A DNA stretch of 48,689 nucleotides from a virus, in the IMG/VR virus record IMGVR_UViG_3300024231_000842, positions 1-48,689 of that record. The stretch is one strand, 5' to 3'. Within the stretch, counting starts at the first letter, position 1. Every line of letters starts with the position of its first letter. Shown here in pieces: positions 4,070-18,245 of this stretch. The translations under genes and the position numbers were made by a program. The notes beneath the pieces are model-generated. The model was not told the DNA's origin. It did not search any database and saw nothing but the letters and a program-made list of their open reading frames with translations.

Positions 4070-5518
4070 ATGCAAAACACAACAGAATTTTCAACAAATA
4101 GCGCAGTAGTAGTACTGTATGACTCAGAAGAATATCATTTACTTGATGGAGAATTATCCGGATATTTAGATACGGTATGTAATAAGGCTAAACTTGATGG
4201 CAAAACGGTCAAGAGCGTAGATATTTCATATCCAGATCATCCTACAATTGACTATATCACTATCGTACAATGGCAAGATAAAATATCAAATACAGACTTG
4301 CGTACACTTGGCGGCAAGAATGTAACAAAATACAAAGGCAAGGTAGATACTTTGTATTTTGCATTAAATCCTGACACAATTAATACTACTGAAGTATATG
4401 ACGGTGCAATGATGGCAAGCTATAATTTTGACAAATACAAAAGTAAAACATCACCATCAGAACGTATGCCAAAAGTTCATATTGAAACAGTAAGTGGAAA
4501 CAAAACAGTTTACAACAGCATTAATTTTGCACGTGACTTAGTATCAGAACCAGCAAATGAATTGTATCCAAGAACATATGCACATACAATTAACGATATG
4601 TTGACGCCGCTTGGTGTTAATGTTAGGATTTATCATCAGTCAGAGTTAGAACAAATGGGCTTTAATTTATTACTAAGTGTTGGACAAGGTAGTGCAAAAG
4701 ATAGTTATGTTGTTGTAATGGAATGGATGAATGGTGATGAAGATGATTCTCCAATTGCTCTAGTAGGTAAAGGTGTAACATTTGATACTGGTGGTATTAG
4801 TATTAAGCCAAGTGCAGGTATGGGTGATATGAAATATGACATGGGCGGTAGTGCATCAGTTGTTGGTGCAATGCATGCGATTGCATCTAATGAGTTAACT
4901 CAAAACGTAGTAGGGATTGTTGGACTAGTAGAGAACATGCCAAGTAGTACCGCAATTAAACCAGGTGATGTAGTTACATCACTAAGTGGACAAACTGTGG
5001 AAAATTTAAATACTGATGCAGAAGGTCGTTTAGTACTTGCAGATATTTTAACACACGTACAGGATGAATATGATCCATTATACATTGTTGATTTAGCAAC
5101 ACTAACAGGAGCTATTGTCGTATCGCTTGCAAGTGAGATGGCAGGATTGTTTACTAACAGTACTCATTTATCAGAAAATATTATCAAGGCAGGTAAAGAT
5201 GCTGATGAAGGATTTTATCGTATGCCAATGGGTCCAAACTGGAATAAGATGATTGATAGTGATATTGCAGACATGAAGAATATCTCAAGTGGACGTGGAG
5301 GCGGTTCAACTACAGCTGCAGAGTTTTTGTATCGTTTTGTAGATAACAATACACCTTGGGCACACTTAGATATTGCAGGTATGGCTTGGGAAAAGTCAGG
5401 AAAACCAGTAACACCAAAAGGTGCAGTTGGTTTTGGTGTAAGAACATTATACAACTTAGTTAAAGCACACTCAAGCAAAAAAACTAAACTGGATGTTGAT
5501 AGTAATATGGATTACTAA
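4070..5518 (+). CDS. pepA: Leucyl aminopeptidase (peptidase M17)
   Basis: A 482-residue protein of normal M17 length with an N-terminal regulatory-like domain (about 1-150) and a C-terminal catalytic domain. All the di-metal ligands expected for the family are visible: K234 and D239 in GKGVTFDTGG, D257 in MKYDMGG, and D316 and E318 in NTDAEGRL. R320 is the expected active-site Arg. M17 enzymes are cytosolic hexamers that remove N-terminal hydrophobic residues from peptides. Viral copies are unusual. Because the same window encodes ClpP, ClpX, ClpA and ClpS, I infer that it finishes digestion of Clp-released peptides to free amino acids for phage protein synthesis. Some family members also bind DNA (Xer-site recombination in E. 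coli), which is an alternative. The start follows AGAGGAAAC. Confidence 0.93.
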   Translation: MQNTTEFSTNSAVVVLYDSEEYHLLDGELSGYLDTVCNKAKLDGKTVKSVDISYPDHPTIDYITIVQWQDKISNTDLRTLGGKNVTKYKGKVDTLYFALNPDTINTTEVYDGAMMASYNFDKYKSKTSPSERMPKVHIETVSGNKTVYNSINFARDLVSEPANELYPRTYAHTINDMLTPLGVNVRIYHQSELEQMGFNLLLSVGQGSAKDSYVVVMEWMNGDEDDSPIALVGKGVTFDTGGISIKPSAGMGDMKYDMGGSASVVGAMHAIASNELTQNVVGIVGLVENMPSSTAIKPGDVVTSLSGQTVENLNTDAEGRLVLADILTHVQDEYDPLYIVDLATLTGAIVVSLASEMAGLFTNSTHLSENIIKAGKDADEGFYRMPMGPNWNKMIDSDIADMKNISSGRGGGSTTAAEFLYRFVDNNTPWAHLDIAGMAWEKSGKPVTPKGAVGFGVRTLYNLVKAHSSKKTKLDVDSNMDY

Positions 5519-14275: not shown

Positions 14276-14506
14276 ATGGCAAACAGTAAACATTCTCGAA
14301 GTGATGGCGGATTAAGCGTTAAAGTACAAAACAATAACGTTGACCAGGCAATGAGAAAATTAAAAAAGAAAATGATGAATGATGGAATCCTACAAGAGCT
14401 AAGAGATCGTCAACATTTTGTAAGTAATACAGCAAAACGTTTAGCGTCTGAAGCAGCAGCAACAGCACGTCACCGAAGACGTATTGCAAAAGAAAACAAT
14501 CGATAA
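14276..14506 (+). CDS. rpsU: Ribosomal protein bS21 homologue
   Basis: A 76-residue, strongly basic protein. From about residue 13, LSVKVQNNNVDQAMRKLKKK followed by NDGILQELRDRQHF follows the bS21 pattern (KVRENE..ALRRFKR..EGIL.E.RRR..F), and the Arg-rich C-terminal helix is also typical. bS21 sits next to the anti-Shine-Dalgarno of 16S rRNA and affects initiation. Phage-encoded bS21 is known from marine viruses. I infer that it replaces the host copy to bias ribosomes toward phage messages. It lies between clpX and clpS. The N-terminal extension of about 12 residues is unusual. Confidence 0.85.
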   Translation: MANSKHSRSDGGLSVKVQNNNVDQAMRKLKKKMMNDGILQELRDRQHFVSNTAKRLASEAAATARHRRRIAKENNR

Positions 14507-15820: not shown

Positions 15821-16356
15821 CGACACATGCAATGATTGACTTAGAAACATTAGGGTTTACTCCTGACACAACAGTATTAACTATTGGCGGTGTGAAGTTC
15901 GATCCTAATTCAATCTCTGAATGTACTCAAGAGTTCTATTATAGGTTTGAAGTAGATGAACAGCTTGAAAGTGGTCGTACAACAGACGATAGTACATTAC
16001 AATGGTGGGGCAGACAAAATAAGTCTGTAATGGAAGAAGCAATGGGACCTGATAATCGTACACCTGTTATCGAAGTACTAAAAGCATTAAACAAATGGTG
16101 CGTGGGAGTTGACTCATTATGGGCGCAAGGACCAACATTTGATATGGTAATATTAGAAAATATGTATCGCCAAAACAATCATCATATTCCATGGAAGTTT
16201 TGGAATATCAGAGATAGTAGAACATTATTTGGTATCATGCCAGTAGATCCACGTAAAGCAATGAACTTTGATGCACACAATGCATTAGAAGATTGCAAAG
16301 CTCAAGCATTATGTGTACAACAAACATTACAGCAATTAGGATTAAAAGTAAAATGA
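15817..16356 (+). CDS. DEDDh-type 3'-5' exonuclease
   Basis: A 179-residue RNase-H-fold exonuclease. MIDLETLG (6-13) provides the first Asp and Glu, [10 protein letters not shown] the second Asp, and [12 protein letters not shown] the DEDDh His and final Asp. The layout resembles T4 DexA and the Rv2179c-like 3'-5' exoribonucleases. It could degrade host DNA or RNA or trim nucleic acid ends. It overlaps the genes on both sides by four bases (ATGA type). Confidence 0.85.
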
Positions 16357-17483
16357 GAATTGATCAGGACATAAAACTAGACTACAGTGACGTACTAATT
16401 CGTCCAAAGCGTAGTACATTAAGCTCACGTAAACAAGTAAGACTTGAACGCAAGTTTACATTTAGAAACAGCAAAAAAGACTACAGTGGTATTCCTATTA
16501 TGGCTGCTAACATGGACGGCGTAGGCACCATTGAAATGGCTAACACACTTGCAGAGCAGGGCATCTTTACTTGTCTTGTAAAAACATATTCAGTAGATGT
16601 ACTATCAGAATTCTTTAACAACGACTATCCAGATCGTAGACGATCAGAGAATGTTGCTATGAGTATTGGTACAAGTGACACTGACTTTCATAAGCTAATA
16701 GACGTTGTAGCTAGTGTAGGTGGAAATCTAAAGTTTGTTTGTATGGATATTGCAAATGGTTATAGTGATCATTTTGCGGCAAGAGTACGTAAGGTACGTG
16801 ATCAGTTTCCACATTTGGTAATTATAGCAGGTAATGTAGTTACTGGAGAAATGACAGAAGAACTAATCCTTGCAGGAGCAGACATTGTTAAAGTTGGTAT
16901 TGGACCAGGTAGTGTATGCACAACACGTATTCAAACAGGCGTTGGTTACCCGCAGTTGTCAGCCGTCATTGAATGTGCTGATGCTGCACATGGACTTGGC
17001 GGACATATTATTGCTGATGGTGGTTGCACTAGTCCTGGCGATGTATCTAAAGCATTTGCAGGCGGAGCAGACTTTGTAATGCTAGGCGGTATGCTTGCTG
17101 GACACGATGAAGGTGGTGGCGAAGTAATTACCAAGTACTATCAAATAAATGAGCTTGTTTATGAAGTTGCATCACATCTTAATAAGCAGACACATAAAGT
17201 AGAAGAAAAACAGTTTATAGCATTTTATGGAATGAGCAGTGATGCTGCAAATACAAAACACTTTGGTGGACTAAAAGACTATCGTGCAAGTGAAGGACGA
17301 GAAGTACTTGTTCCTTATCGTGGCAATGTTACTAATACAATACAAAATATCTTGGGCGGTTTGCGTAGTACTTGTACATATGCAGGTGCATTAAAGCTTA
17401 AACAATTAAGTAAATGTACAACATTTGTTAGAGTGAATAATCAGTTCAATGCAGTTTATGCAAATACCACAACTAAATTATAA
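16353..17483 (+). CDS. guaC: GMP reductase
   Basis: ATG 16353 overlaps the exonuclease stop (ATGA) and gives a 376-residue protein beginning [20 protein letters not shown], the typical GuaC start; a longer frame upstream is not needed. [10 protein letters not shown] contains catalytic C189, and [16 protein letters not shown] plus [11 protein letters not shown] form the phosphate and flap regions. There is no CBS module, which argues against IMP dehydrogenase. The enzyme deaminates GMP to IMP with NADPH, moving guanine nucleotides toward adenine, which would suit an AT-rich phage. It is about 30 residues longer than E. coli GuaC. Confidence 0.9.
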
Positions 17484-17491
17484 AAAAATAC

Positions 17492-17520
17492 TTGACATAT
17501 AGATTAAGACATGCTATGTT
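17492..17520 (+). promoter_or_regulatory. Sigma70-type promoter of a structured RNA
   Basis: TTGACA (17492-17497), a 17-base spacer and TATGTT (17515-17520). The predicted start near 17527 coincides with the first base of an 8-bp hairpin, and no protein gene begins before the terminator at 17623. Confidence 0.7.
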
Positions 17521-17526
17521 AAGTAC

Positions 17527-17651
17527 ATAGTTAGGAAACTAACTATCAGGCGATGAAGTTGGCCTAGGATACAATGTAGTAAGACTTGGTATTAACCTTC
17601 ACCTACAAAAGAGAAGTATAGGCCCTGTTGCAGTAATGCAGCAGGGTTTTT
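17527..17651 (+). ncRNA. Stand-alone structured small RNA
   Basis: About 125 nt lie between a promoter and an intrinsic terminator and contain no convincing ORF. From 5' to 3': a perfect 8-bp hairpin ATAGTTAG/CTAACTAT (17527-17546) with a GAAA tetraloop; a long-range stem AGG..TGAAG.TT (17548-17560) with AA.CTTCA.CCT (17594-17604); GGCCTA (17561-17566), complementary to TAGGCC (17619-17624), which would close a pseudoknot; and the terminator. I do not recognise a known family. A regulatory RNA acting on host or phage messages is likely; a protein-binding decoy is an alternative. Confidence 0.65.
17623..17651 (+). terminator. Intrinsic terminator of the structured RNA
   Basis: A 10-bp stem CCCTGTTGCA/TGCAGCAGGG (one G-U pair) with a GTAA loop, followed by TTTTT. 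Its first two bases overlap the proposed pseudoknot strand TAGGCC, so the two structures could compete. Confidence 0.85.
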
Positions 17652-17735
17652 CTATGAGCTGCGCATATATGCACAGTTGCACTAGACGCATGTCGAGTCT
17701 ACGCAGACAGCAGTAGTAAACCCTGGTTTTTCGTG
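17642..17735 (+). other. Second structured non-coding segment
   Basis: The gap between GMP reductase and the gene at 17815 is 331 bases. Downstream of the terminator, CAGGGTTT (17642-17649) is perfectly complementary to AAACCCTG (17719-17726). Together they would enclose about 70 bases containing a TAGAC/GTCTA hairpin and a TGCGCATATATGCA near-palindrome, with GGTTTTTC following. Because CAGGG is also the 3' arm of the terminator, the two pairings exclude each other. This could be an antiterminator-like switch or a second RNA. No ORF is seen. Confidence 0.35.
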
Positions 17736-17744
17736 TTATTATGA

Positions 17745-17752
17745 TATAAATA
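17745..17752 (+). promoter_or_regulatory. T4-type late promoter
   Basis: A perfect TATAAATA, with +1 expected near 17758, upstream of the small gene cluster starting at 17815 (leader of about 57 bases carrying AAAAGGAGA). Confidence 0.6.
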
Positions 17753-17814: not shown

Positions 17815-18000
17815 ATGATGACTAATATGCTATTTACTGGCTTAGTGAATATATTCACGAAATCAAAAACAAGACAAGAATCAAATATGATGACTTGGGC
17901 AAAAACAGAATACGGAAATGATTGGCAGTTTGCTTATCAATGCATGCTAGACACTGGTATGCCACCATCAGATAAAGATATAAGAGGAATGATATTATGA
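17815..18000 (+). CDS. Small hypothetical protein
   Basis: A 61-residue protein behind a strong ribosome-binding site (AAAAGGAGACTGAC). It has a hydrophobic N-terminal stretch and a soluble Trp/Tyr-rich half. It overlaps the DUF1127 gene by four bases and heads a cluster of four coupled small genes. Function unknown. Confidence 0.65.
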   Translation: MMTNMLFTGLVNIFTKSKTRQESNMMTWAKTEYGNDWQFAYQCMLDTGMPPSDKDIRGMIL

Positions 18001-18245
18001 TTAACACAATTATTACAAAACTAATTAATTTTAGACGCAACATGGAGTATAGAACGGCTGTTCGTACTACTATCAAAGAACTTTCGAAACTAACTAACCA
18101 TGAGCTACAAGATATTGGTATTTGTCGTGGAGAAATTTACACAATTGCACACAATTCATATAACAAACCACAACAAGTAACATTATCTGAAATTTCAGAT
18201 ATGACAGATCTTGAAACAAATGCTAACTTGAAAGGTTTCGTATAA
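17997..18245 (+). CDS. DUF1127-like small protein
   Basis: An 82-residue protein whose central part, TIKELSKLTNHELQDIGICR followed by GEIYTIAH, matches the DUF1127 pattern (REL..L.d.EL.DIGl.R.dI). DUF1127 proteins are small, common in alpha- and gammaproteobacteria, and linked to RNA turnover and nutrient responses. A viral copy suggests mimicry of a host regulator. The C-terminal tail is longer than usual. It is coupled on both sides by overlaps. Confidence 0.7.
   Translation: MINTIITKLINFRRNMEYRTAVRTTIKELSKLTNHELQDIGICRGEIYTIAHNSYNKPQQVTLSEISDMTDLETNANLKGFV

What the first reader, a model, noticed from the sequence alone, without database searches (positions are those of the whole stretch)
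17492..17651. Stand-alone structured RNA gene with promoter, GNRA hairpin, pseudoknot and terminator
A consensus promoter is followed by a 125-nt non-coding unit that begins exactly at the expected start with a perfect 8-bp GAAA-capped hairpin, has a bulged long-range stem and a GGCCTA/TAGGCC pairing that would form a pseudoknot, and ends in a strong terminator. It matches no RNA family that I recognise. The 5' cap hairpin and compact fold imply a stable small RNA made early in infection.
Basis: partly seen in the sequence, partly recalled or inferred. Interest (0 to 1): 0.75.

Follow-up and report, generated by a model that had tools for sequence, protein, structure and literature searches.

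The report
Orphan phage small RNA gene
A marine bacteriophage carries what looks like a self-contained gene for a 125-letter RNA that makes no protein, with its own start and stop signals, but it is known from a single phage population, its inner fold is not supported, and its job can only be guessed.

Summary
The observation mostly holds. Between guaC and a DUF1127 operon of an uncultured, T4-like marine phage lies a discrete cassette. It has a consensus host-type promoter (17492-17520), an 8-bp GAAA hairpin starting at the predicted +1 (17527-17546), a 75-nt body, and the strongest intrinsic terminator of the window (17623-17651). The cassette is cleanly absent from relatives (L017, L145), which keep the flanking sequence on both sides. 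It matches no Rfam family. The 'compact fold' fails: without the end hairpins the body folds no better than shuffled sequence, and a 6-bp pairing like GGCCTA/TAGGCC occurs in 39% of shuffles. That pairing nests in the nascent RNA and is excluded by the finished terminator, so it looks like a possible antiterminator, not a pseudoknot. Four seed scans of IMG/VR, one of species genomes and searches of related contigs found only one other copy, in a near-identical contig. Covariation therefore cannot be tested. Best reading: a lineage-specific phage small RNA (sRNA) gene, probably made early and acting in trans; the target is unknown. Main rival: a leader attenuator of the downstream DUF1127 operon. 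The more striking find lies nearby: relatives carry a covarying tandem-hairpin leader RNA in this same gap.

The parts
17492..17520 (+). sigma-70-type promoter TTGACA-17-TATGTT, TG before the -10; 8 nt after the guaC stop codon
   Evidence: 10 of 12; sequence
17527..17546 (+). 5' cap hairpin ATAGTTAG-GAAA-CTAACTAT at the predicted transcription start
17547..17622 (+). body of the RNA, not more structured than shuffled sequence; holds ACCTTCACCTACAAAAGAGAAG
   Evidence: body folded alone; unpaired probabilities
17561..17566 (+). GGCCTA, partner of TAGGCC; with GCGAT..AG upstream it can pair 13 bp with the 5' strand of the terminator (antiterminator-like)
17619..17624 (+). TAGGCC, overlaps the first two C's of the terminator stem
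17623..17651 (+). intrinsic terminator, 10-bp stem with GTAA loop, then TTTTT
   Evidence: pairing probability about 1.0
17484..17651 (+). whole cassette, absent as a block from L017 and L145 between conserved flanks
17656..17722 (+). conserved block after the cassette (CTGCGCA..ACAGTTGCA..ACGCATGTCGAGTCTACGCA), kept in relatives that lack the cassette; upstream of the late-type promoter
17745..17752 (+). TATAAATA, T4-type late promoter of the downstream operon
   Evidence: [TG]ATAAATA is upstream of the same small ORF in 71 of 79 relatives against 7% of control stretches
17815..18245 (+). small ORF (17815-18000) and DUF1127 protein (17997-18245) downstream; context, not part of the RNA
16353..17483 (+). 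guaC (IMPDH/GMP reductase domain) upstream; context

Best explanation
A lineage-specific, stand-alone small RNA gene of a T4-like phage. Host RNA polymerase with sigma-70 starts at about 17527 and stops at about 17651, giving a 125-nt RNA. Its 5' GAAA hairpin and 3' terminator hairpin shield both ends from decay, and an exposed, weakly structured middle is free to base-pair with a host or phage mRNA. Shown in sequence: the promoter, the hairpin at +1, the terminator, lack of coding, and presence or absence as one block. Inferred: transcription itself, early timing (host-type promoter, whereas the next operon has a late-type promoter), stability, and trans-acting base pairing. The target is unknown.
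For: Promoter, +1 hairpin and terminator are each rarer than chance and correctly spaced. The same promoter-hairpin-terminator arrangement in non-coding DNA was found only here in a scan of the roughly 160 related loci held. The cassette is missing as a block from L017 and L145 while guaC and the downstream block are kept. The downstream operon has its own late-type promoter, so it does not need this transcript. The body is open, not compact, as expected of a base-pairing RNA with stabilised ends. Phage sRNAs of this size and type are known (PMC12197685).
Against: No transcript data. No homologue except an identical copy, so no selection on the RNA can be shown. No phage mRNA start region in the window pairs better than for shuffled bodies (best -30.4 kcal/mol; 24 of 100 shuffles as low). 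The U tract is short (5).
Confidence: 0.5

Rival explanations
1. It is a leader attenuator: the RNA from the sigma-70 promoter is the early leader of the small ORF/DUF1127 operon, and a GCGAT..AG..GGCCTA segment can hold the 5' strand of the terminator and allow read-through when some signal favours it.
For: A 13-bp pairing between the body and the 5' strand of the terminator dominates the predicted nascent fold until the terminator is complete; only 2.3% of shuffled bodies reach 13 pairs. DUF1127 genes can be under attenuation: Sinorhizobium meliloti duf1127-1 (PMC12218461), though there without an intrinsic terminator. The operon lies 164 nt beyond the terminator.
Against: The same pairing is not significant by duplex energy (8.8% of shuffles) or by nascent fold energy (41%). 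At equilibrium the terminator wins by 6.5 kcal/mol. The downstream operon has its own late-type promoter and conserved upstream block, and relatives keep these without any cassette.
Confidence: 0.2
2. It is only a promoter-terminator remnant or insulator: the terminator ends the guaC operon and shields the late operon, and the short RNA has no function of its own.
For: No terminator precedes the cassette after guaC. Another relative, L017, has a strong terminator-like hairpin with a T run at a similar boundary. No sign of selection on the body.
Against: An insulator needs no consensus promoter and no perfect hairpin at +1; both are present.
Confidence: 0.17
3. It is a decoy that binds a host RNA-binding protein or host sRNA (sponge), possibly together with the phage DUF1127 protein next to it.
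For: DUF1127 protein CcaF1 of Rhodobacter sphaeroides is described as a small RNA-binding protein (PMC10253847), and phage sRNA sponges such as AgvB are known (PMC12197685).
Against: No repeated or recognisable protein-binding motif in the body; no test possible without the host.
Confidence: 0.1

Closest known systems
Phage-encoded trans-acting sRNAs (PreS of lambda, about 88 nt; SprY of prophage phi12, about 125 nt; VpdS of VP882; PMC12197685)
   Same: Short non-coding RNA encoded by a phage, of similar size, without an ORF.
   Different: Those have measured transcripts and targets. Most come from temperate phages or prophages. No sequence relation was tested to any of them beyond Rfam.
Non-coding RNAs of T4-like marine phages (CfrI of S-PM2; wcaG, manA, glnA RNAs of S-CREM1; PMC12197685, PMC9964418)
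   Same: Marine T4-like phage with RNA genes between or near metabolic genes.
   Different: Those are listed as cis-encoded RNAs in cyanophages. This one does not overlap a gene, and its nearest phage protein relatives are in phages of alphaproteobacteria.
Attenuator leader of duf1127-1 in Sinorhizobium meliloti (PMC12218461)
   Same: Short RNA made upstream of a DUF1127 gene by premature termination.
   Different: That leader depends on a translated upstream ORF and probably on Rho, with no intrinsic terminator. Here the terminator is intrinsic and the only ATG frame before it is 4 codons (MKLA, 17553-17567) with no good ribosome-binding site.
Leader RNA seen here upstream of the same small ORF in related phages (tandem hairpins with GAWAGA loops)
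   Same: Same intergenic gap, same downstream gene family.
   Different: No sequence or structural similarity. That RNA follows the late-type promoter and shows compensatory changes; the RNA of the window has its own sigma-70 promoter and terminator.

Membership tests
Stand-alone phage sRNA gene | own promoter and own intrinsic terminator, no coding sequence | tested here: met
Stand-alone phage sRNA gene | detected transcript of the predicted size | not testable with these tools
   no RNA data; uncultured phage
Stand-alone phage sRNA gene | conservation or covariation in homologues | tested here: inconclusive
   only an identical copy in a near-identical contig
Trans-acting antisense RNA | significant complementarity to a target start region | tested here: inconclusive
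   no significant target among 55 ORF start regions of the window; host unknown, host mRNAs not tested
Any of 4227 Rfam 15 families | covariance-model match at the gathering score | tested here: not met
   best hit below 1 in E-value terms is a 22-nt terminator-hairpin match far under its cutoff
   body -12.9 against -13.7 +/- 2.8 kcal/mol; pairing nested in the nascent RNA and excluded by the terminator
Transcription attenuator of the downstream operon | mutually exclusive terminator and antiterminator | tested here: inconclusive
   (2.3% by pair count, 8.8% by duplex energy, 41% by nascent energy)
Transcription attenuator of the downstream operon | downstream genes depend on read-through | tested here: not met
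   own late-type promoter TATAAATA at 17745-17752, conserved in 71 of 79 relatives, though read-through as an additional early route is not excluded
Tandem-hairpin leader RNA of related phages | GAWAGA-loop hairpins between the late promoter and the small ORF | tested here: not met
Other sigma-70-promoter intergenic RNAs of related phages (X and Y in this report) | profile match | tested here: not met
   nhmmer profiles find no match in the window

The most novel reading that the evidence does not exclude
The cassette is a regulated terminator/antiterminator switch, or a trans-acting replacement of the cis leader RNA that relatives carry in this gap, so that the DUF1127 operon of this lineage is controlled by a new kind of RNA element.
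Probability: 0.1. Interest if true: 0.55.

Novelty: new member of a known kind. Interest (0 to 1): 0.3.

Why it matters
Lytic marine phages are rarely screened for sRNA genes, and a self-contained one gained or lost as a cassette beside metabolic genes would be a clear case of how phages acquire RNA regulators. On its own it is an orphan of unknown function. Its larger value is that it pointed to a gap which in related phages holds a covarying, unlisted structured leader RNA.

Tried and rejected
Homologue search by four sequence seeds in viral contigs: only the near-identical contig; the other hits to the GATGAAGTTGGCCTAG seed look like coding matches to Asp-Glu-Val-Gly-Leu-Ala, and those to the other two seeds show no similarity beyond the seed. 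Species genomes: none. Known phages by blastn: chance hits. nhmmer without filters against the related loci: none. 50 whole related contigs: only 14-19 nt hits; the best one lies in what reads as a lipase-like coding sequence. Search by architecture in the related loci: no other non-coding unit like it. Target search in the window: not significant. The idea that it is a divergent copy of the X or Y RNAs of relatives: no profile match. RNAalifold on a MAFFT alignment of the neighbouring leader RNA gave a poor consensus because the stems were misaligned; hairpin-by-hairpin extraction was used instead. A covariance model of the sRNA was not built: one distinct sequence cannot give covariation (and the one attempt had a structure string of the wrong length).

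Full report
What the window is. It is a 48,689-bp fragment of an uncultured virus (G000). Its DNA ligase is closest to those of Rhodobacter, Phaeobacter, Ruegeria and Caulobacter phages (42-45% identity), and it carries T4-type TATAAATA late promoters, guaC, clpX/clpS/clpP-like genes and a DUF1127 gene. Host: probably an alphaproteobacterium (inference).

The unit. Eight bases after the guaC stop codon lies TTGACA-17-TATGTT with an extended TG. Six bases after the -10, at the expected start, a perfect 8-bp hairpin with a GAAA loop begins (17527-17546). It is the only 8-bp GNRA-type hairpin of the + strand; shuffles of the window give 0.17. At 17623-17651 stands a 10-bp hairpin with a GTAA loop and a T5 tract. 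Only four terminator-like sites exist on the + strand and none in 20 shuffles. No ORF of 40 aa or more covers the unit on the + strand. Nothing in Rfam matches, even at relaxed thresholds.

The inner structure. The z-score of the whole unit (-3.7) comes from the two end hairpins. The body alone folds at -12.9 kcal/mol against -13.7 +/- 2.8 for shuffles, and 39% of shuffles hold a stem of 6 bp or more. GGCCTA/TAGGCC nests around the weak inner stems in the nascent RNA, extends there to 13 bp with GCGAT and AG, and is displaced when the terminator completes. Against shuffled bodies this alternative is 2.3% by pair count, 8.8% by duplex energy and 41% by fold energy. It is therefore a weak hint of an antiterminator and no evidence of a pseudoknot.

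Relatives. The only other copy found is in contig IMGVR_UViG_3300024335_000660, 99.97% identical to the window over 8.6 kb. Seeds from four parts of the unit, profile searches, a DNA search of 50 whole related contigs, known phages and species genomes gave nothing else. In L017 and L145, alignable guaC sequence ends and the conserved block 17656-17722 begins with no cassette between. The cassette was therefore gained or lost as a block; which of the two is not shown. In more distant relatives the gap before the same small ORF holds another RNA (below).

Timing and independence. The downstream small ORF family is preceded by [TG]ATAAATA in 71 of 79 relatives against 7% of control stretches, and the window has TATAAATA at 17745-17752. 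By the known use of this motif in T4-like phages, that operon is late, while the RNA has a host-type promoter. So an early, separate RNA is the simplest reading. This rests on motifs only.

Mechanism. Committed reading: a stable trans-acting sRNA with protected ends and an open middle (0.5). Phage sRNAs of this kind and size are known (PMC12197685). A target search over 55 ORF start regions of the window found nothing above shuffles; host mRNAs could not be tested. Rivals: attenuator of the DUF1127 operon (0.2; a host precedent of DUF1127 attenuation exists, PMC12218461, but by another mechanism), insulator without function (0.17), decoy (0.1).

Nearby finding. Upstream of the same small ORF, relatives carry a leader RNA made of tandem hairpins. 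Across 21 distinct sequences hairpin 1 has 7 different stems around a constant GAWAGA loop, hairpin 2 has 13 stems and hairpin 3 has 13, all complementary. The loop UAUCC of hairpin 2 is complementary to GGAUA at the loop of hairpin 1 in many sequences (possible kissing loops; read from the sequences, not tested). Rfam gave no match on ten related loci, of which L002 and L004 carry a variant of this leader; the loci with the canonical form were not scanned.

Verdict. A real and ordinary-looking transcription unit, an orphan, with an over-interpreted fold.

Noticed in passing
upstream of the small ORF at 3001 in L108, L109, L110, L111, L114, L115, L125, L126, L129, L139, L141, L147, L157, L169, L170 and others (about 30-200 nt before the start codon); variant in L002, L004, L005, L006, L018, L024: Conserved leader RNA of tandem hairpins after a late-type promoter; constant loops (GAWAGA, AAA, UAUCC) with many different complementary stems, and module number varies (L112, L130, L150 have one more hairpin). 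Not in Rfam in the loci scanned, and looks like a new structured RNA class of marine phages.
   Followed up: partly
L054:2608-2821, L068:2496-2709, L076:2484-2696, L049:2487-2699, weak in L072:2757-2825: RNA 'X': about 215-nt conserved, strongly folding non-coding RNA with a consensus sigma-70 promoter, between an S21-like gene and an Hsp20-like gene; no Rfam match in L054, L050, L076.
   Followed up: partly
L017:3019-3186, L046:2989-3157, L077:3025-3193, L011:2794-2962; short copy L161:1676-1721 (-): RNA 'Y': conserved non-coding stretch with GGGTTGC..ACGAAATAAGCACGTG and a following hairpin, after a consensus promoter and before a late-type promoter; in L161 the core ends in a T run.
   Followed up: partly
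window 17656-17722; L017:5150-5232; L095-L103 about 2811-2927: Conserved block CTGCGCA..ACAGTTGCA..ACGCATRYCGAGTCT..GCA just upstream of the late-type promoter of the DUF1127 operon; many relatives have an ATGCA/TGCAT inverted repeat followed by a TGCA-like half there. Possibly a DNA regulatory site.
   Followed up: partly
L017 about 5235-5275: Strong terminator-like hairpin (AAGTGTGAACAC..GTGTTTACACTTTTTTT) in the leader just before the small ORF, in a relative that lacks the cassette.
   Followed up: no
L054:1799-2335, L072:1935-2471; window 14276-14506: These phages appear to encode translation initiation factor 3-like (relatives) and ribosomal protein S21-like proteins (relatives and window), beside ClpX, ClpS, ClpP and ClpA-like genes; read from sequence, not tested against families.
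   Followed up: no
window 17553-17567: Four-codon frame ATG AAG TTG GCC TAG inside the RNA, its stop overlapping GGCCTA; no good ribosome-binding site.
   Followed up: partly
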